Shown: positions 3,443 to 12,537 of the stretch, piece by piece | Layout: each line of letters opens with the position of its first letter | Position numbering within the stretch: position 1 is the first letter of the stretch | Source of the DNA: Pseudomonas antarctica | Lineage (GTDB): Bacteria; Pseudomonadota; Gammaproteobacteria; Pseudomonadales; Pseudomonadaceae | Assembly (NCBI RefSeq): GCF_001647715.1 | Contig: NZ_CP015600.1 | Coordinates: 1,922,001 to 1,986,000 of the forward strand | Length of the DNA stretch: 64,000 bases | Direction of reading: 5' to 3' | Notes under the pieces: generated by a model | Database searches by the model: none | The model's input: the letters and a program-made list of their open reading frames with translations, nothing else | Told to the model about the DNA's origin: nothing | Translations under genes and position numbers: made by a program

Positions 3443-3620
3443 AGGGGGGGAGGTGGTTTGCCTGCGTTCGGCCATCCTGGTTAACGGGGCCTGTCAGATC
3501 AAGATCAACAGCAGATCAAAAGCAGAGCACGGCGGCCTGGTAGCCGACCTGAGTGGTTGAAGCAAAAGCAGGGCAACAGCACAGCAACACCACTTTTACC
3601 GGATGAAATGAGTTCCAAAT

Positions 3621-3707
3621 GTGGGAGCGGGCTTGCTCGCGAATGCGGTGTGCCAGTCGGCTTATTTGTAACTGACCCAGCGCATTCGCGAGCAAGCCCG
3701 CTCCCAC
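3621..3707. repeat. REP pair (REPIN) inside the compound repeat
   Basis: GTGGGAGCGGGCTTGCTCGC starts at 3621 and its inverse ends at 3707, with matching GAATGCG/CGCATTC inner flanks. This is the classic REP core of the P. fluorescens group. Confidence 0.88.
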
Positions 3708-3754
3708 AATGTTGACCGAGTTTAACTGCCGGCACCGCAGTGCTCTGCTTTTCT

Positions 3755-3795
3755 GTGGGAGCTGGCTTGTCGGACCGCCGAACCGCTGCGATGCA
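3755..3795. repeat. Single REP, GTGGGAGCTGGCTTGT variant
   Basis: It carries the same sequence as the left half of the REP pair at 824, including the following CGGACCGCCGAACCGCTGC. No inverted partner lies close by, so it looks like half of a former pair. Confidence 0.75.
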
Positions 3796-3908
3796 GACAC
3801 CTCGGTACATCAGGCATATCCAGCCGCAGACCCCAGGCCAGCTCCCGGATTGACCCAATACAGTCTGAAGAGCAGCCCATCCTCTGCCTGATGTACCCAG
3901 TTCCAAAT

Positions 3909-3945
3909 GTGGGAGCGGGCTTGCTCGCGAATGCGGTGTGCCAGT
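3909..3945. repeat. Single REP, direct copy of the one at 3621
   Basis: About 45 bp around it, from AGTTCCAAATGTGGGAGC to GCGGTGTGCCAGTC, repeat the sequence around 3611-3657 in direct orientation. This suggests local duplication within the compound repeat. Confidence 0.78.
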
Positions 3946-4405: not shown

Positions 4406-5338
4406 TCAACCCGCTTTGAGTGCCTGGTGCGGCACCGAGCAGGCCTCATCCAGAAACTTCACCACGGTCCCCATGCATGCCTGGCGTTCTTCCACGTGGG
4501 GCATGTGGCTGGAATCTTCAAACAGCGCCCAGCGCACGTCCGCGATCTCATCCAGGAACGGTTTGACCACCAATGGCGTGGCCTCGTCGTGCCGACCGGA
4601 GATCACCAGGGTTGGCACATTGATCGCCGACAACCGGCCAATCACGTTCCAGTCCTTCAAGCTGCCGATCACATGGAACTCCGTCGGGCCGCTCATGGCG
4701 TGGTACACCGTCGGGTCCGAATCCACTGCCGCGAAGGTGCGCGCCACTTCTTCCGGCCACGGGTTGACGCGGCACACGTGCTGGTCATAGAAAACCCGCG
4801 AGGCGGTTAGGTATTCCGGGTCTTGGTAGGTGCCGGCCTGTTCGTGTTTGAGCAGGGTTTCATGCACGCCTTCGGGCAACAGTTTGCGCAGGCGGTTGGC
4901 TTCGCTGACCCAGGTGCGCATGCACGTCGGCGAGTTGGCCGGGATGAATGCGCGCAGGCCTTTGGGCTGCAGAATCGCGTGCTCGCTGCCGAGCATGCCG
5001 CCCCACGATTGCCCGAGGATCGCGTAATTGTCGCTGATGTGCAGGTGGTCCAGCAGGTTGTTCAGCTCTGCGAGGAACAGGTCGATGGTCCAGAAAGACG
5101 CATCTTTTTCCGGTAAGTGTGTGGAGCGGCCATTGCCGAGTTGGTCGTAGTGAATAACCGCATGGCCGCTGGCGGCAACGTCCTTGAACGCGTCGACATA
5201 GTCATGGGTGCAGCCGGGACCGCCGTGGATGATCACCAAAGGTGTACGGCCGGTGGTCAGGTCGCCGGTGACGCGGTACCAGGTCTGGTAGGCGCCGAAG
5301 GCCGCATAGCCTTCGCGCATCTTCTCGATGAATTCCAT
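4406..5338 (-). CDS. pip: Proline iminopeptidase-family alpha/beta hydrolase (first copy)
   Basis: A 310-residue cytoplasmic serine hydrolase of the S33 type. Visible features are the oxyanion motif HGGPG (38-42), the nucleophile elbow GQSWGG with Ser111, Asp251 in SGRHDEATP and His278 in SSHMPHVEE. Such enzymes release an N-terminal proline or other residue from small peptides or amides. The start at 5338 gives the usual family N-terminus ([11 protein letters not shown]) with CAGGG upstream; the longer frame adds only a poor hydrophobic stub. It lies directly downstream of, and on the same strand as, the LuxR-type gene, and a dyad like the one before the second hydrolase lies 60 bp before its start. 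The pair of pip genes around one regulator suggests joint control. Confidence 0.88.
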
Positions 5339-5398
5339 TTCGTACCCTGCTCTGAAAAAAAGGATCAGGGGTACGATAGACGGCACGCGAAGTTTAAG

Positions 5399-5420
5399 TA
5401 ACTAGCAAAACAGCTAGGTT
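5399..5420. promoter_or_regulatory. Candidate PipR (lux-box-like) operator of the first pip gene
   Basis: A 22-bp imperfect dyad, read on the minus strand as AACCTAGC-N6-GCTAGTTA. It lies in the 93-bp gap between the LuxR-type gene and pip. A -10-like TATCGT begins 21 bases downstream on the minus strand, a spacing that suits a class II LuxR-type promoter. It shares AACCTA, TAG and total length with the dyad at 6276-6297. Confidence 0.5.
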
Positions 5421-5431
5421 TTGCCGACGGA

Positions 5432-6217
5432 TCAATCTTCCAGCAAGCGGTAATGGGTGGCGCGGACTACCGCCTGGACGCGGTTTTTGGCTCCCAGTTT
5501 GTGCATCGCCGAGGCCAGGTGCAGGGTGACCACCGCCAGTGAACGGCTCAATTGCGTGGCGATTTCGGCGGCGGTGAAACCTTCGGCGGCCCATTTCAGG
5601 CATTCGCGCTCGCGTTTGGTCAGATGAATATGCGGGTAGGTACGTAGCTCTTTGCTGAACAACGGGTAGGCCGCTTCCTGCAAGGCATGGGTAATCAGGC
5701 TGAAATCCGTCAGGGTCTGCTGCGCATCTTGTAACACCGTGCTGGCGTTACCGGTGCGCAGTCCGGTCAGCGACGCGAAACCGCCGCGCGGCAGATGAAT
5801 GGGCACACTGACGCCGCAGGTCAGTTGGCGTTCATGCAGATAAGTGGACACCGGCGCATGGCAGGGGTCGATGATTTTTTGCAGCGCGGTCTGGGCTTTT
5901 GCCTCATAGGACCAGACGAACGGCGACACCGTGCTCAGGGCCAGGTGTTGCACCGGGTCGATCTGGTAAAACCCTTCGCTGCACCACAACGCGTGCCAGT
6001 CCGGCGGGGTATTACGCAACTCCAGCACCGACGGCGTGATCAGTGAGCCGTCCTGGTCGATGGGCACTGGCGTGTAGTCGTACACCAGCGCATCGAAGCC
6101 CAATTGTTGGGCGAGGATAAATGTGTTGTCCATCTGTTCATCCAGGCTCCTGCCCGGCATCAGACGGTTATTGAAGGCGGTTAGCTTGGCCAGCATCCGT
6201 TCTGCTCCCGAATTCAT
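5432..6217 (-). CDS. pipR: LuxR-family 'solo' regulator, PipR/PsoR/OryR-like
   Basis: A 261-residue transcription factor with an N-terminal autoinducer-binding domain (about 20-180) and a C-terminal LuxR helix-turn-helix (LTKRERECLKWAAEGFTAAE onward). Using TraR numbering (offset 17), Trp57, Asp70, Pro71 and Trp85 are kept (Trp74, Asp87, Pro88, Trp102), but Tyr61 is replaced by Trp (Trp78). That change is typical of plant-responsive LuxR solos, which do not answer ordinary acyl-homoserine lactones. No luxI synthase is present. Flanking pip genes and a peptide ABC importer match the Pseudomonas PipR locus, whose regulator responds to a plant ethanolamine-derived amide. The ATG at 6217 was preferred to a GTG at 6250 because the GTG has no clear ribosome site. 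The exact ligand is inferred, not shown. Confidence 0.82.
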   Translation of the reverse strand: MNSGAERMLAKLTAFNNRLMPGRSLDEQMDNTFILAQQLGFDALVYDYTPVPIDQDGSLITPSVLELRNTPPDWHALWCSEGFYQIDPVQHLALSTVSPFVWSYEAKAQTALQKIIDPCHAPVSTYLHERQLTCGVSVPIHLPRGGFASLTGLRTGNASTVLQDAQQTLTDFSLITHALQEAAYPLFSKELRTYPHIHLTKRERECLKWAAEGFTAAEIATQLSRSLAVVTLHLASAMHKLGAKNRVQAVVRATHYRLLED

Positions 6218-6275
6218 TTGAATCTCGACTTGCGGCAAGTAGAATGCCACGCCCCGGCGAAGGACTGCCAGGCCA

Positions 6276-6297
6276 AACCTATAAGAAATACTAGGTT
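6276..6297. promoter_or_regulatory. Candidate PipR operator between pipR and the second pip gene
   Basis: A 22-bp dyad with perfect 6-bp arms, AACCTA-N10-TAGGTT, in the 162-bp divergent intergenic region. A -10-like TAGTGT starts 22 bases downstream toward pip (start 6380). It lies 58 bp before the pipR start, so it might also serve autoregulation. Confidence 0.55.
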
Positions 6298-6379
6298 ATG
6301 GACGCACGGCATCCTCGGTAGTGTTGGCCAGATAAACGGCCGCTGACTGCCAGGCCGATACAACACAAGGAACGTACGC

Positions 6380-7267
6380 ATGTGGCGTGAAATTGCCCCC
6401 GACCAGCAGTACAACGTGCAAGTCGACGGCCATAACGTCGTGGTCTACAGCTTTGGCGACGGCGATGAGGTGCTCTTGTGTCTCAATGGCGGCCCGGGCT
6501 TGCCATGTGACTACTTGCGCGACGCCCATGGCTGGCTCAAAGAGCATAACCTGCGAGTGGTTGCATTCGACCAGCTTGGTACCGGCGCATCAGCCAGACC
6601 GGCCGACGTTTCCTTGTGGGAAATCAGCCGTTATGTCGAAGAAGTTGAAACCGTGCGCCGTGCCCTGGATCTCGGCCGCGTGCATTTGCTGGGGCATTCC
6701 TGGGGCGGCTGGCTGGGCATCGAATACGCCATCCATTACCCCGACGCACTGAAAAGCCTGATCCTCGAAAACACCGTCGGCGACATTCCGCACCTGTCCC
6801 AGGAGCTCGAACGCCTGCGCGGTGCCCTCGGCAGCGAAACCGTGGCCATGATGCAGCGCCATGAAGCCATGGGCACCCTGGACCATCCGCAGTACCAGGC
6901 CGCGATTACTTTGCTCAATTACCGTCACGTCTGCCGTCTGGACGAATGGCCGGAGCCGGTCAAGCGCTCCCTTGGCGACTGGAACATGGGACCCTACGAA
7001 GCCATGCAGGGCCCCAACGAATTCCTGTACATCGGTAACCTCAAGGACTGGAACCGCATCCCCCAGATGGCCGAGTTCAAGATGCCAATCCTGATCACCA
7101 CCGGCCAGCACGATGAACTCACGCCGGCCTGCGCCCATCGCATGAAGCTGGCCGCCAGGCATGCCGAATTGCACGTGTTTCCCAACAGCAGCCACATGCC
7201 CTTTTATGAGGAACCCCACGCGTACTTCCCGGTGCTGCTGGACTTCCTCGCTCGCCATCGAGGATGA
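6380..7267 (+). CDS. pip: Proline iminopeptidase-family alpha/beta hydrolase (second copy)
   Basis: A 295-residue S33-type hydrolase, clearly paralogous to the gene at 4406. The catalytic triad is visible as Ser107 (GHSWGG), Asp245 (GQHDELTP) and His272 (SSHMPF). The oxyanion motif reads NGGPG (36-40), with Asn in place of the usual His. It is the first gene of a six-gene plus-strand run; the permease follows after 3 bp, so hydrolysis and uptake are probably co-expressed. AAGGAA precedes the ATG. In known PipR systems the neighbouring iminopeptidase is the main activated target; that role is inferred here. Confidence 0.88.
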   Translation: MWREIAPDQQYNVQVDGHNVVVYSFGDGDEVLLCLNGGPGLPCDYLRDAHGWLKEHNLRVVAFDQLGTGASARPADVSLWEISRYVEEVETVRRALDLGRVHLLGHSWGGWLGIEYAIHYPDALKSLILENTVGDIPHLSQELERLRGALGSETVAMMQRHEAMGTLDHPQYQAAITLLNYRHVCRLDEWPEPVKRSLGDWNMGPYEAMQGPNEFLYIGNLKDWNRIPQMAEFKMPILITTGQHDELTPACAHRMKLAARHAELHVFPNSSHMPFYEEPHAYFPVLLDFLARHRG

Positions 7268-7270
7268 CGG

Positions 7271-8218
7271 ATGAACCTGGCGCGTTACCGTTTTGTACTG
7301 TCCCGGCCGCTGCAATTGCTGCCGGTGTTGTTTGGCATCAGCCTGATCACCTTTGTGCTGGTGCGCTCGATCCCCGGCGACCCGGCGCGGGCCTTGCTGG
7401 GCTCACGCAGTACGCCGGATGCGTTGCTGAAAATCCGCGCCCAGTACGGCCTCGATCAACCGTTGTGGCTGCAGTATTTCTACTTCCTCAAGAACTTGCT
7501 CAAGGGCGATCTCGGCCAGTCGCTGTTGTACAAGGTTGACGCCTTGAAGCTGATCGTCACGCGGATCGAACCGACCTTGGTACTGGTGCTCGGCAGTGTG
7601 CTGCTGGCGCTCTTGATTGCAGTGCCGCTGGCGACGGTGGCGGCGCGCAATAAAGGCGGTTGGGCAGACAACCTGATTCGCGTGTTCACCACGGTTGGCC
7701 TGGGCATGCCGGCGTTCTGGCTGGGCTTGATGTTGATTTTGTTGCTGAGCGTGAAGTGGGGCCTGTTCCCGGTGTCCGGCTACGGGCGCACCTGGCTGGA
7801 TAAGGCTCACCATATGCTGCTGCCCTGTTTGACCATCGCCCTGGCGCTGTCGGCGGTGCTGGTGCGTAACCTGCGCGCGAGCATGCTGATGGAGTTGCAG
7901 GCCGACCATGTCACCGCTGCCCGGGCGCGCGGGCTGTCGGAGGCCGCCGTGTTCCGTCGGCATGTGTTGCCCAATTCCCTGGTGCCGGCGGTCAACCTGC
8001 TGGCGGTGAATATCGGGTGGTTGATCAGCGGCACCGTGGTGATCGAGAGTCTTTTCGCCATTCCCGGCATCGGCCAGTTGCTGGTGCGCGGCATCTTCAC
8101 CCGTGACTACATGGTGGTGCAGGGCGTGGCCATGGTGCTGGCGTGTGCGACGGTGGTGGTCAACTTCGTCGCTGACGTGGTGACGGTGGCCCTCGACCCA
8201 CGAGTGAAGATGCAATGA
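7271..8218 (+). CDS. Peptide/nickel-type ABC transporter permease, DppB-like
   Basis: A 315-residue inner-membrane permease with six predicted helices. The first transmembrane segment and SIPGDPAR loop are typical of DppB/OppB/GsiC proteins, and the EAA loop that docks the ATPase reads AARARGLSEAAVFRRHVLPN. It starts three bases after the pip stop codon and overlaps the next permease by four bases (ATGA), showing a tight operon. It would form the channel with the product of the next gene. Confidence 0.9.
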   Translation: MNLARYRFVLSRPLQLLPVLFGISLITFVLVRSIPGDPARALLGSRSTPDALLKIRAQYGLDQPLWLQYFYFLKNLLKGDLGQSLLYKVDALKLIVTRIEPTLVLVLGSVLLALLIAVPLATVAARNKGGWADNLIRVFTTVGLGMPAFWLGLMLILLLSVKWGLFPVSGYGRTWLDKAHHMLLPCLTIALALSAVLVRNLRASMLMELQADHVTAARARGLSEAAVFRRHVLPNSLVPAVNLLAVNIGWLISGTVVIESLFAIPGIGQLLVRGIFTRDYMVVQGVAMVLACATVVVNFVADVVTVALDPRVKMQ

Positions 8219-9072
8219 GCAGCCGCCCACTGATTGCCCCGTGGCGTTTGCGCCTGCGTTTTGGTTTTCGCAATGGTCGACTGACCGCTGCGTGGGGGTT
8301 GTTGATTTTGTTGGCCTGGTTTGCCCTAGCACTGTTTGCACCGTGGGTTGCGCCTTTTGATCCGATTGCGCAAAACACCGATATCAGCTTGTTGGGCCCC
8401 AGCATGGCCCACCCGTTCGGCACGGATAACTACGGAAGGGACATTCTTTCGCGGGTGATCTGGGGCGCGCGCATCGACTTGCAACTGGCCATCATCGGGG
8501 TGATTTTCCCGTTCATGATCGGCACCTTCGTCGGCGCCGTCTCCGGCTACATTGGCGGTCGTTTCGACAGCGTCTGCATGCGCGTGATCGACGTGATCCT
8601 CGCGTTCCCGTTCCTGGTGCTGATGCTGGCGATCATGGCCATTCTCGGCCCGGGCTTGAAGAGCTTCTATATCGCCATGGCGCTGGTGGGCTGGGTGTCG
8701 TATGCGCGGCTGATCCGCTCACAGATCCTGGTGCTCAAGGAAAGCGACTTCGCCCTGGCCGCCAAGAGCCTGGGCTTTGGCCACGGGCGCATTCTGTTCC
8801 GGCATTTGCTGCCCAACGCGATGTTTGGCTCGATTGTGTTTTCCATGTCCGACGCGGTGCTGGTGCTGCTCAACGGCGCCGCCGTGAGTTATCTGGGCCT
8901 GGGTGTGCAACCGCCGACGGCCGAGTGGGGCACGATGGTGGCCGAAGGGCAGGCGTTCATCACCACCGCCTGGTGGATTTGCACCTTCCCGGGCCTGGCC
9001 ATCGTGACCCTGGCCATGGGTTTCAGCCTGTTGGCCGATGGCGTGGCGCAAGTGTTGGGAGACCGTTCATGA
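8215..9072 (+). CDS. Peptide/nickel-type ABC transporter permease, DppC-like
   Basis: A 285-residue partner permease. The N-terminal cytoplasmic stretch and first helix are followed by the typical HPFGTDNYGRDILSRVIWGA motif of DppC/OppC proteins and by an EAA loop (AAKSLGFGHGRILFRHLLPN). It overlaps both neighbours by four bases (ATGA junctions), consistent with translational coupling. Confidence 0.9.
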   Translation: MSSRPLIAPWRLRLRFGFRNGRLTAAWGLLILLAWFALALFAPWVAPFDPIAQNTDISLLGPSMAHPFGTDNYGRDILSRVIWGARIDLQLAIIGVIFPFMIGTFVGAVSGYIGGRFDSVCMRVIDVILAFPFLVLMLAIMAILGPGLKSFYIAMALVGWVSYARLIRSQILVLKESDFALAAKSLGFGHGRILFRHLLPNAMFGSIVFSMSDAVLVLLNGAAVSYLGLGVQPPTAEWGTMVAEGQAFITTAWWICTFPGLAIVTLAMGFSLLADGVAQVLGDRS

Positions 9073-10025
9073 GCCTGCTTCAAGTGCAGGACCTCAGCGT
9101 GATCGCCCATAACGCCGGGCGTGATGTCACCCTGGTTGACCGGGTGTCCTTCGACCTGGCCGAAGGTGAAATCCTCGGCCTGGTGGGCGAGAGTGGCTCG
9201 GGCAAGACCATGGCCTGTCGCGGCCTGATGCGGCTGTTGCCGTCGGCCAATCTGCGCGTGCAAGGCGGTGCCGTGCGCCTGGCAGGTCGCGATTTATTGC
9301 AACTGGATGACCCCGGCATGCGCGCCGTGCGGGGCGGGCAACTGGGTATGATTTTCCAGAACCCCAGCAGCCATCTTGACCCGCTGATGCGCATCGGCGA
9401 GCAGATCGCCGAAGGTATTCGGCTGCATCAAGGCGCGTCGAAAAAAGACGCACGCTTGCACGCCATCGAGGTGCTGCGCCAGGTCGGCATTCCCGATCCC
9501 AAGGCGCGAGTCGATAACTACCCTCACGAGTTTTCCGGCGGCATGCGTCAGCGGGCAATGATCGCGGTGGCCCTGGGCTGCAACCCGAAAGTGCTGATTG
9601 CCGACGAGCCGACCACCGCGCTGGATGTGACCGTGCAGGCGCAAATCCTGCGCCTGTTGTTGGACCTGCGTGACCAGCATGGCCTGTCGATGATCATGAT
9701 CACCCACGACCTCGGCGTGGTGGCGCAAACCTGTGACTCGATCGCGGTGATGTACGCCGGGCGCCTGTGCGAACACGGCAGCAAGTACGACTTGCTGGCC
9801 CATCCACAACACCCGTACACCGCCGGCCTGATCGATTGCCAGCCCGCCCACAGCAGCGGCCACGCCTTGCTGCGTACCATTGCTGGCCAGCCGCCGTTGC
9901 TGGATGCCTTGCCCGCCGGTTGCCGGTTCAACCCGCGCTGCCCGCAGGTGGGCGCCTTGTGCACCGAGTTGCTGCCGGAAGGTGCGCGGGTGGCCTGTCA
10001 CTATCCCTTGGGAGGTCGCCCATGA
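9069..10025 (+). CDS. Oligopeptide-type ABC transporter ATPase, DppD-like
   Basis: A 318-residue ATP-binding subunit with Walker A (GESGSGKTM), signature FSGGMRQR, Walker B ([12 protein letters not shown]) and switch His (MITHDLG). The C-terminal oligopeptide-transporter extension carries conserved cysteines ([14 protein letters not shown]) that in this family can hold an iron-sulfur cluster. The start at 9069 overlaps the previous stop; longer in-frame starts reach into the permease gene and lack family similarity. Confidence 0.9.
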
Positions 10026-11041
10026 GCCTGTTGCAGATCAAGGACCTCGAGGTGCGTTTTGCGGCGTCCGGCACCGGTTTGTTTGGCCTGAATAAACAGT
10101 GGGTGAGGGCGGTGAACGGTGTGTCGCTGAACCTGGCCGCCGGTGAAACCCTGGGTCTGGTGGGCGAGTCCGGCAGCGGCAAGAGCACACTGGGCCGGGC
10201 AATTTTGCACCTCAACCCGATCAGTGCCGGGCAGGTCTTGTTCGATGGCGTGGACATGGCCCATGGCAGCGCTATCGACATCGCTCGCCTGCGCCATGAA
10301 ACCGCGATGATTTTCCAGGACCCTTACGCCGCCTTGAACCCACGCCACACCATTGGCGAAACCATTGCCGAAGTGCTGCGGGTGCAACGCAAAGCCGCGC
10401 CAGAGCAAATTCCCCAGCGGGTCAATGAATTGCTCGAACTGGTCGGCCTGCGCCCCGAATTGGCCAACCGCAAACCCGGTTCACTCAGTGGTGGCCAATG
10501 CCAGCGTGTCGGTATCGCTCGGGCGCTGGCGGTAGAGCCGCGCTTGATCATCGCCGATGAGTGCGTGGCGGCATTGGATGTGTCGATTCAGGGCCAGATC
10601 ATCAACCTGTTGCTGGAACTGCAACAGCGCATGAACCTGGCGATCCTGTTTATCGCCCATGACCTGGCCATCGTGCGTCGCCTGTGCGACCGCGTGGCGG
10701 TGATGTACCTGGGCAAGATCGTTGAGGAAGGCCCGGTGGAGGCGGTGTTTACCGCGCCGCGCCATCCGTATACAGCGGCGCTGATCGAGGCGATTCCCGA
10801 GATTGATCCGCGTCGGCCTTTGCCAGCGGAGCCGTTGCCGGGTGAGCCGCCGAGCCCGTTGAATTTGCCCGCAGGTTGCGCCTTTCACCCGCGTTGCCGC
10901 TACGCCCGGACAATGTGTTCCGTGGTGTTGCCGCCTACTCATTTCCTGCACGAGCATCGATACAGTTGCGTGCTTGAAGCACCTTTGACCCTTTCTGCCA
11001 TTCATGAACAAGGAGTTATGACATGCAATCCCGCCACTTGA
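10022..11041 (+). CDS. Oligopeptide-type ABC transporter ATPase, DppF-like
   Basis: A 339-residue second ATPase with Walker A (GESGSGKST), signature LSGGQCQR and switch His (FIAHDLA). Walker B reads LIIADECVAALD, with Cys-Val in place of the usual Pro-Val/Thr; the catalytic Glu is kept. The C-terminus has the usual cysteine cluster (CAFHPRCRYARTMC). Its last codons run 19 bases into the binding-protein gene. Confidence 0.9.
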   Translation: MSLLQIKDLEVRFAASGTGLFGLNKQWVRAVNGVSLNLAAGETLGLVGESGSGKSTLGRAILHLNPISAGQVLFDGVDMAHGSAIDIARLRHETAMIFQDPYAALNPRHTIGETIAEVLRVQRKAAPEQIPQRVNELLELVGLRPELANRKPGSLSGGQCQRVGIARALAVEPRLIIADECVAALDVSIQGQIINLLLELQQRMNLAILFIAHDLAIVRRLCDRVAVMYLGKIVEEGPVEAVFTAPRHPYTAALIEAIPEIDPRRPLPAEPLPGEPPSPLNLPAGCAFHPRCRYARTMCSVVLPPTHFLHEHRYSCVLEAPLTLSAIHEQGVMTCNPAT

Positions 11042-12537
11042 AGTTGCTCGCCGCGGCTACATTGACCGCTTGGTCCCTCACTGCCGGGTTGGCACACGCC
11101 GCTGGCGTGCTGACCATCGGCTGCCGTGAAGACAGCACCACTTTCGATCCGATCAAAAGCGCGCAAAACCGCGACACCTGGGTATTCGCCAACGTCTACG
11201 ACACCCTGGTGCGCGTGGATAACCTGGGCACGAAGATGGAGCCGGGCCTGGCAGAAAGCTGGGAGATTTCCAAGGATGGCCTGACCTACACCTTCAAGCT
11301 GCGTGACGCGAAGTTCTCCGATGGCTCGCCGATCACCGCCGACGACGCGGCGTTCAGCCTGTTGCGCATCCGCGACAACAAGGCGTCGCTGTGGAGTGAC
11401 CCGTTCAGCCTGATCAGCACGGCCAAGGCCAGTGATCCCAAGACCCTTGTGGTCACCCTGAAAACCCCGGCCGTGGCCTTCCTCTCGCAATTGGCCTCGC
11501 CGACGGTATCGATCCTGTCGGAAAAAGCCATGACCAAAATGGGCGAGGACGCCTACTCGGAAAACCCGGTGACCTCCGGCGCGTTCACCGTAGAGGAGTG
11601 GCGCAAGGGCGATCGCGTCATCCTGAAAAAGAACCCGAACTTCTGGCAGGCCAAGAACGTCAGCCTGGATGGTGTGGAGTGGGTGTCGGTCACCGATGAC
11701 AACACGCGCATGCGCATGGTGCAGAACAACGAACTCGACACGGCGATCTTCGTACCGTTCTCCCGCGTGGAAGAACTGAAGAAAGACAAAAACGTGGTGA
11801 TCCACTCCGACCCGTCCACCCGTGAAGATCACCTGCTGATCAACCACGCTCACGGTCTGCTGGCCAAGCAGCCAGTGCGCGAGGCGCTGGACATGGCCAT
11901 CGACAAACAGTCGCTGGTGAAGACTGCGACTTACGGTCAAGGCGCCGTGGCCTATTCCTACATCCCGAAAGGCTCGCTGTTCCACTATGCCAACAACCTG
12001 CAGCGCCCGTATGACCCGACGGCCGCGAAGAAACTGCTGGAAGAGGCTGGCGCCAAGGATTTGAAGCTCAACTACGTGGTCAACGCCGGCAACGAAGCGG
12101 ACGAGCAGATTGCAGTGATCATCAAGGACCAGTTGGCCAAGGTCGGCGTGACTGCCAACCTGCAGAAAGTCGACCCGACGCAAAGCTGGCAGATGCTGGT
12201 GGACGGTGAGTACGACATTTCAGTGATGTACTGGACCAACGACATTCTCGACCCGGACCAGAAGACCACTTTCGTACTGGGCCATGACACCAACCAGAAC
12301 TACATGACCCGCTACAAGAATGACAAGGTCAAGGAACTGGTGGCGGCTGCGCGGATCGAGGCCGACCCGGTCAAGCGCGAGCAGATGTATGTGGAGTTGC
12401 AGAAGCTGGCGAAACAGGATGTGAACTGGATTGATCTGTACTACAGCCCGTACATCAACATCTCACGCAAGAATGTGAGTAACTTCCTGCAAAACCCGCT
12501 GGGGCGTTTCACCCTTGAGGACGTGGTGAAAAACTAA
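11023..12537 (+). CDS. Periplasmic peptide-type solute-binding protein (SBP family 5)
   Basis: A 504-residue protein with a signal peptide ending near AGLAHA-AG and a mature start (VLTIGCREDSTTFDPIKSA) typical of DppA/OppA-type binding proteins. It ends the pip-ABC operon. Because its neighbours are iminopeptidases and a PipR-like regulator, the ligand may be a small peptide or a plant-derived amide rather than a general dipeptide, but the sequence alone does not settle this. GGAG lies before the ATG at 11023. A REP pair follows the stop codon. Confidence 0.88.
   Translation: MQSRHLKLLAAATLTAWSLTAGLAHAAGVLTIGCREDSTTFDPIKSAQNRDTWVFANVYDTLVRVDNLGTKMEPGLAESWEISKDGLTYTFKLRDAKFSDGSPITADDAAFSLLRIRDNKASLWSDPFSLISTAKASDPKTLVVTLKTPAVAFLSQLASPTVSILSEKAMTKMGEDAYSENPVTSGAFTVEEWRKGDRVILKKNPNFWQAKNVSLDGVEWVSVTDDNTRMRMVQNNELDTAIFVPFSRVEELKKDKNVVIHSDPSTREDHLLINHAHGLLAKQPVREALDMAIDKQSLVKTATYGQGAVAYSYIPKGSLFHYANNLQRPYDPTAAKKLLEEAGAKDLKLNYVVNAGNEADEQIAVIIKDQLAKVGVTANLQKVDPTQSWQMLVDGEYDISVMYWTNDILDPDQKTTFVLGHDTNQNYMTRYKNDKVKELVAAARIEADPVKREQMYVELQKLAKQDVNWIDLYYSPYINISRKNVSNFLQNPLGRFTLEDVVKN

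What the first reader, a model, noticed from the sequence alone, without database searches (positions are those of the whole stretch)
5399..6297. Two matching 22-bp dyads upstream of both pip genes: candidate PipR regulon operator
AACCTA-N10-TAGGTT at 6276-6297 and AACCTAGC-N6-GCTAGTTA (minus strand, 5399-5420) have the same length and arm sequence. Each is placed before a pip gene, with a -10-like hexamer 20-21 bases downstream (TAGTGT and TATCGT), the geometry of class II LuxR activation. No such dyad was noticed elsewhere in the window. A shared operator would make the two hydrolases and the importer one regulon.
Basis: partly seen in the sequence, partly recalled or inferred. Interest (0 to 1): 0.7.

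Follow-up and report, generated by a model that had tools for sequence, protein, structure and literature searches.

The report
PipR's two conserved operator sites
Two matching DNA switches beside a plant-signal sensor gene are real, deeply conserved and essentially already described in a related bacterium, although one of them seems tied at least as closely to the sensor's own gene as to the peptidase and importer genes it was assigned to.

Summary
Both dyads are real and lie as stated. The window carries the PipR locus of a Pseudomonas fluorescens-group genome: pipA, pipR, and divergent aapA plus a peptide ABC importer. The orthologous sites are published for Pseudomonas sp. GM79 (PMC4981722): one at -71.5 from pipA (a two-base change abolished PipR activation), one at -91.5 from aapA (weak effect). 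New here: in the window plus 80 pipR loci, the aapA-pipR dyad is in 81 of 81 and the pipA dyad in 80 of 81. TAnnnT lies exactly 20 bp past the pipA dyad in 80 of 80, after an unconserved spacer, and 21 bp past the other in 70 of 81. Of 248 family genomes, the 12 with a close PipR orthologue carry exactly one of each site; the other 236 give 2 and 1 stray matches. So the strict operator marks a local, two-site regulon. The 6276-6297 dyad is also locked (47 bp in 79 of 81) to a near-invariant block that looks like pipR's own promoter, and it survives in a P. protegens locus without aapA or importer. PipR autoregulation is therefore likely but untested. GM79's annotated pipR start looks over-extended. 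Interest is modest.

The parts
5399..5420 (-). Site P: 22-bp dyad AACCTAGCTGTTTTGCTAGTTA, PipR operator of pipA, centred -71.5 from the pipA ATG
   Evidence: 80 of 81 loci; arms invariant in 45 less redundant loci
5373..5378 (-). -10-like hexamer TATCGT of pipA, 20 bp after site P
   Evidence: TAnnnT at offset 20 in 80 of 80 loci; spacer poorly conserved
4406..5338 (-). pipA, proline iminopeptidase-family hydrolase; ATG at 5338
   Evidence: TIGR01250 above cut-off; 75% identical to GM79 PipA
5432..6196 (-). pipR, LuxR solo, 254 aa from the ATG at 6196 (the ORF listing ORF with a GTG start runs to 6250)
   Evidence: PF03472 and PF00196; 73% identical to GM79 PipR; SD-preceded ATG in 81 of 81 loci; open frame of only 254 aa in two genomes
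6205..6209 (-). GGGAG, likely Shine-Dalgarno sequence of pipR
6235..6275 (-). Near-invariant block between site A and the pipR leader, ending in GTGGCATTCTACTTGC (6250-6235); candidate pipR promoter
   Evidence: Distance from site A start to GTGGCATTCTA 47 bp in 79 of 81, 46 bp in 2; column profile; one exact copy in the genome
6276..6297 (+). Site A: 22-bp dyad AACCTATAAGAAATACTAGGTT, shared divergent PipR operator; centred -93.5 from the aapA ATG
   Evidence: 81 of 81 loci
6319..6324 (+). -10-like hexamer TAGTGT of aapA, 21 bp after site A
   Evidence: TAnnnT at offset 21 in 70 of 81 loci
6380..7267 (+). aapA, proline iminopeptidase-family hydrolase, orthologue of the GM79 alanine aminopeptidase
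   Evidence: TIGR01250; 87% identical to GM79 AapA
7271..12537 (+). Peptide-type ABC importer: two permeases, two ATPases, one substrate-binding protein
   Evidence: Pfam; 79-90% identical to GM79 proteins

Best explanation
Both dyads are lux box-type operators of PipR, a plant-responsive LuxR solo. Signal-bound PipR dimers bind site P and switch on pipA by helping RNA polymerase at a promoter that has a -10 but no conserved -35 (class II-like). Site A is a shared divergent operator: it has the same geometry to the aapA/importer promoter, and it also sits at a fixed distance from what looks like pipR's own promoter, so PipR probably also controls its own synthesis. By the strict operator sequence the regulon is confined to this locus, one copy of each site per genome. 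Shown here: presence, conservation, spacing, co-occurrence with PipR. Shown by others in GM79: PipR and site P dependence of pipA, and a weak PipR effect on aapA. Inferred: binding in this strain, and the existence and sign of pipR autoregulation.
For: Site A in 81 of 81 and site P in 80 of 81 loci, always 22 bp. Arms invariant or nearly so, pipA spacer poorly conserved, -10 invariant. TAnnnT at offset 20 in 80 of 80 (pipA) and at offset 21 in 70 of 81 (aapA), with 0 or 1 at the other offsets 14-29. Among 248 family genomes, 12 of 12 close PipR carriers have exactly one of each site next to pipR, against 2 and 1 matches in the other 236. In 15 relatives the five PipR carriers are exactly those with both sites. 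The GM79 orthologues of both sites are at the published -71.5 and -91.5 (PMC4981722), and a two-base change in the pipA site abolished activation there.
Against: No binding data in this strain. In GM79 the aapA reporter responded little to PipR. In 9 putida-type loci the aapA -10 is not at the class II distance. P. protegens L094 keeps pipA but lost site P. Ten genomes of another genus with 46-47% homologues have neither pattern at the regulator. The site patterns were written after the alignments were read.
Confidence: 0.85

Rival explanations
1. Site A serves mainly pipR (autoregulation, up or down), while aapA and the importer are close to constitutive; only site P is a strong activation site for a peptidase gene.
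For: Distance to the pipR block fixed (47 bp in 79 of 81, 46 in 2), whereas the aapA -10 distance is kept in 70 of 81. The pipR-side arm TATAGGTT is invariant in the 81 loci by the way the pattern was set, and the wider flank is conserved beyond it. Site A persists in L094, which lacks aapA and the importer. The GM79 aapA reporter had a high basal level and a small response.
Against: TAnnnT at exactly 21 bp on the aapA side in 70 of 81 loci and at almost no other offset argues for a selected aapA promoter too. In L094 another peptidase gene lies divergently and could be the target. No pipR reporter data were found.
Confidence: 0.4
2. The dyads are sites of another regulator, not PipR.
For: No direct binding has been shown in this strain.
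Against: Presence of both sites tracks PipR in two genome sets; the GM79 site needed PipR.
Confidence: 0.04
3. The likeness of the two dyads is chance, or mere shared ancestry without function.
Against: The fitted pattern has 3 exact places in 6.6 Mb, two of them here. In the same ungapped alignment the pipA spacer has diverged while the arms and -10 are invariant.
Confidence: 0.01

Closest known systems
PipR-PipA-AapA system of Pseudomonas sp. GM79 (PMC4981722; abstract, passages, part 1 of Results and the Discussion seen)
   Same: Same genes in the same order, 73-90% identical proteins; same two dyads, site P at the identical -71.5.
   Different: Site A at -93.5 instead of -91.5 from aapA. 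The GM79 paper placed it over the pipR coding region; the comparison here puts it upstream of pipR.
OryR/XccR and other plant-responsive LuxR solos with a pip box (PMC10134790, PMC7301841, PMC7683790, PMC3909224; passages only)
   Same: LuxR solo beside a pip gene with a lux box-like element in the pip promoter.
   Different: OryR-type proteins have M and W where PipR has W and W (passages). The GM79 site matched the OryR box in only 13 of 20 bases. No pip-box sequence from Xanthomonas was compared here.
Vibrio fischeri-type lux box (sequence and -42.5 position recalled, from no call)
   Same: 20-bp dyad with ACCT arms and CT-N12-AG core; -10 about 20 bp downstream.
   Different: Arm ACCTA rather than ACCTG; regulator is a solo without an AHL synthase gene found in this genome.

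Membership tests
Plant-responsive LuxR solo of the PipR type | LuxR-family domains: autoinducer-binding plus GerE HTH | tested here: met
   PF03472 and PF00196 above cut-off
Plant-responsive LuxR solo of the PipR type | W57 kept and Y61 replaced by W, with D70, P71, W85 kept (numbering after TraR, residues given in papers) | tested here: met
   W, W, D, P, W at the matching spacings; alignment to TraR itself was not made
Plant-responsive LuxR solo of the PipR type | Neighbouring pip gene(s) and peptide importer | tested here: met
Plant-responsive LuxR solo of the PipR type | No cognate LuxI (solo) | tested here: met
   No PF00765 match in the genome; the same search rings in 11 of 59 congeners, though in none of the 14 named control genomes
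Plant-responsive LuxR solo of the PipR type | Responds to a plant compound (HEHEAA in GM79) | not testable with these tools
   Needs a reporter assay
PipR operator / lux box | About 20-bp dyad with CT-N12-AG core upstream of the target gene | tested here: met
PipR operator / lux box | Position giving class II activation (box next to the -35 region) | tested here: met
   Fixed 20-bp and 21-bp distances to a -10-like hexamer; transcription starts not mapped
PipR operator / lux box | Bound by the regulator | not testable with these tools
   Needs gel shift or footprint

The most novel reading that the evidence does not exclude
Site A is chiefly pipR's own control element: PipR autoregulates from a shared divergent operator at a near-invariant, non-consensus pipR promoter (with a sigma-54-like TGGCAT-N5-TTGC look in 65 of 81 loci). 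PipR is then a strictly local two-site regulator that ties sensing, uptake and breakdown of its signal into one closed loop.
Probability: 0.4. Interest if true: 0.45.

Novelty: new member of a known kind. Interest (0 to 1): 0.3.

Why it matters
The GM79 authors wrote that they wished to know which genes besides the peptidase genes PipR controls (Discussion). An operator found once per site type per genome, at the locus, predicts few or no distant direct targets, which is directly testable. The fixed coupling of site A to the pipR promoter block, and the corrected pipR start, offer a simple reason why the GM79 aapA reporter responded so weakly, and point to feedback at the regulator itself. The conserved footprint gives a reference operator for PipR-type regulators in plant-associated pseudomonads.

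Tried and rejected
Regulon outside the locus. The exact fitted pattern has one further place in the genome (G000:C1:3264054, AAACTAAATAGACATTTAGTTT). A near-identical element occurs in G005, which has no PipR match, so it is probably not a PipR site. Fifteen of the places listed were fetched and their surroundings read with a rough ORF caller: 5 of 15 fall inside apparent genes; of the rest only one was followed further. That one lies upstream of a FleQ-like gene (identity recalled from the protein start, not searched), followed because OryR affects motility. In the 8 aligned loci, the query's own included, the 22-bp spacing is kept in 4 and longer by one base in 4. It is kept in two genomes without PipR (G002, G006) and, of the four other PipR carriers, only in G004, with a changed arm; a ninth locus, L158, gave no letters at the site. 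It does not track PipR and was rejected.

pipR start at the GTG (6250). Considered, because L087 and L093 have ATG there and the residues that follow look protein-like. Rejected as the general start: the frame is closed or shifted before pipR in 11 of 81 loci, two further genomes have an open frame of only 254 aa, I see no SD-like sequence at a normal distance before the GTG (by eye), and an SD-preceded ATG stands downstream in 81 of 81. A short leader peptide in some genomes is not excluded.

Sigma-54 promoter for pipR. GG-N10-GC in 75 of 81 and TGGCA-N6-TTGC in 65 of 81, but 6 loci break the GG-GC register and the bases between are as invariant, so it is left open. Structured RNA: no Rfam match at E up to 0.1 in 5300-6450. 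The sigma-70 scan put its two hits elsewhere in the stretch, not at the dyads.

L134 and L139 (AACCTA-type palindromes in PipR-less G003 and G002): neighbours look like an RpoS-type sigma factor and a LysR-type gene by eye, no pip locus in the 3 kb seen.

Dyad search in distant relatives: my scoring cut-off was too strict, since it also missed the sites in L169 and L170 that pattern searches found; its negatives are not used as evidence.

Full report
What is there. The window holds, on the minus strand, a LuxR-type regulator (5432-6196 by the start argued below) followed by a proline iminopeptidase-family hydrolase (4406-5338). Divergently, on the plus strand, it holds a second hydrolase of that family (6380-7267) and a five-gene peptide-type ABC importer to 12537. 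The proteins are 73-90% identical to those of the published PipR locus of Pseudomonas sp. GM79: PipR 73%, PipA 75%, AapA 87%, importer proteins 79-90% (against L081). The regulator shows the W57/W61/D70/P71/W85 spacing given for PipR (residues from passages). The genome has no AHL synthase match, while the same search rings in 11 of 59 congeners, though in none of the 14 named control genomes. The nearest locus in the named collection is from P. antarctica, 97% in PipR.

The observation. Both dyads and both -10-like hexamers are at the stated places. A pattern fitted to both sites has 3 exact places in 6.6 Mb, two of them these.

What is already known. In GM79 (PMC4981722; abstract, passages, part 1 of Results, and the Discussion seen) an inverted repeat centred -71.5 from pipA was required, by a two-base mutation, for PipR-dependent pipA expression. 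A second potential site was placed -91.5 from aapA, described as overlapping the 5' coding region of pipR. The aapA reporter had about five times the basal level and rose only about 1.5-fold with peptone. In L081 (GM79) the two dyads found here are centred at exactly -71.5 and -91.5; in the window they are at -71.5 and -93.5. They are the same elements. Later papers name HEHEAA as the inducer of PipR (passages of PMC10134790 and PMC7301841); the original report was not seen.

Conservation. One scan of the genome collection gave 80 pipR loci, the best 80 of 116 found. With the window, site A matched in 81 of 81 and site P in 80 of 81, always 22 bp long; L094 lacks site P. The patterns were written after reading the sequences, and many loci are close relatives, so I also looked at 46 less redundant loci (45 with site P). 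There the arms are invariant or nearly so; in front of pipA the 20-bp spacer is poorly conserved and TATcGT is again near-invariant. That is the footprint of an activator-dependent promoter without a -35. TAnnnT stands at offset 20 in 80 of 80 (pipA) and at offset 21 in 70 of 81 (aapA), with 0 or 1 at each other offset from 14 to 29. The 11 aapA-side exceptions are 9 putida-type loci with a shifted TATAGC, L069 (TAGTGC) and L094 (no aapA).

One pair per genome. Of 248 family genomes, 22 have a PipR homologue at E up to 1e-50 (in most genomes only the best 10 candidates were scored): 12 in the window's genus at 66-100% identity, window's genome included, and 10 in another genus at 46-47%. Each of the 12 carries exactly one site P and one site A, both beside pipR. 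The other 236 give 2 site P matches (G050, away from its regulator, and G079) and 1 site A match (G221). In a set of 15 relatives, PipR is found in G000, G004, G007, G009 and G010, exactly those with both sites side by side. By the strict operator, PipR looks like a local regulator; degenerate sites elsewhere would be missed.

The second site and pipR. Site A starts 47 bp before GTGGCATTCTA in 79 of 81 loci and 46 bp before it in 2. The stretch from the dyad through that block is conserved far beyond the dyad, more than the aapA side. It is not simply coding: the frame from the GTG is closed or shifted before pipR in 11 of 81, G007 and G010 have an open frame of just 254 aa, and in 81 of 81 an ATG with an SD-like sequence and a frame of at least 245 codons stands 98-122 bases from the dyad start, at 101 in 68 of them. 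GM79's 289-aa annotation (size from a passage of PMC7683790) fits an ATG 10 bases before the dyad. In 65 of 81 loci a stop stands at that edge in the GTG's frame. So site A is very probably intergenic and the block is pipR's promoter or leader. In P. protegens 14B2 (L094) aapA and the importer are absent and an M24 peptidase lies divergently, yet site A and the block remain; pipA is kept there but site P is lost. This points to a role of site A at pipR itself. An operator at a fixed distance from the regulator's promoter suggests autoregulation; its sign and strength are unknown.

Wider relatives. In 10 of 10 loci of the other genus the half-arm GCTAGGTTTG lies upstream of the 46-47% homologue, and CTAGGTTTG lies upstream of a Rahnella plasmid homologue; a Pararhizobium one lacks it. 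This suggests that the half-site next to the regulator is older than the full dyad; it is a lead only.

Mechanism committed to. The importer brings in the signal. PipR binds it, then site P, and activates pipA from a class II position. The same protein at site A contributes to aapA/importer transcription and probably to pipR expression. The peptidases then limit the signal (in GM79, peptidase mutants showed a stronger response). Binding in this strain and autoregulation are inferred.

In print or not. Searches listed no paper whose title or abstract start reports pipR autoregulation or a genome-wide count of the PipR operator. A Kosakonia paper suggests autoregulation of psrR from a putative box (passage of PMC7301841). 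The library holds few subscription papers.

Noticed in passing
window 6235-6250 (-): GTGGCATTCTACTTGC in front of pipR resembles a sigma-54 -24/-12 element (TGGCAT-N5-TTGC; GG-N10-GC in 75 of 81 loci), but the bases between are as invariant and 6 loci break it. Its nature is unexplained.
   Followed up: partly
L094 7801-8007 and 8765-8860: P. protegens 14B2 pipR locus: no aapA or importer, a divergent M24 peptidase instead, site A kept, site P lost although a pip gene follows pipR.
   Followed up: partly
L171-L180 and L181 2729-2990, upstream of the regulator gene: The half-arm CTAGGTTTG recurs upstream of distant PipR homologues in another genus of the family (10 of 10) and on a Rahnella plasmid.
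   Followed up: partly
G000:C1:3264054-3264075 (L115 2055-2076): Intergenic palindrome AAACTAAATAGACATTTAGTTT, also in PipR-less G005 with one change; operator of an unknown regulator.
   Followed up: no
L081 (GM79) pipR 5' end: The 289-aa GM79 PipR annotation appears to start about 37 codons too early, which made the aapA-side site look like coding DNA.
   Followed up: yes
window 3620-3930: Repeated GTGGGAGCGGGCTTGCTCGCGAATGCG-type sequences in both orientations, REP-like, between two transcription units (seen).
   Followed up: no
plasmid collection: PipR-like regulators below 60% identity sit on 152 plasmid records, 123 of them Rhizobium.
   Followed up: no
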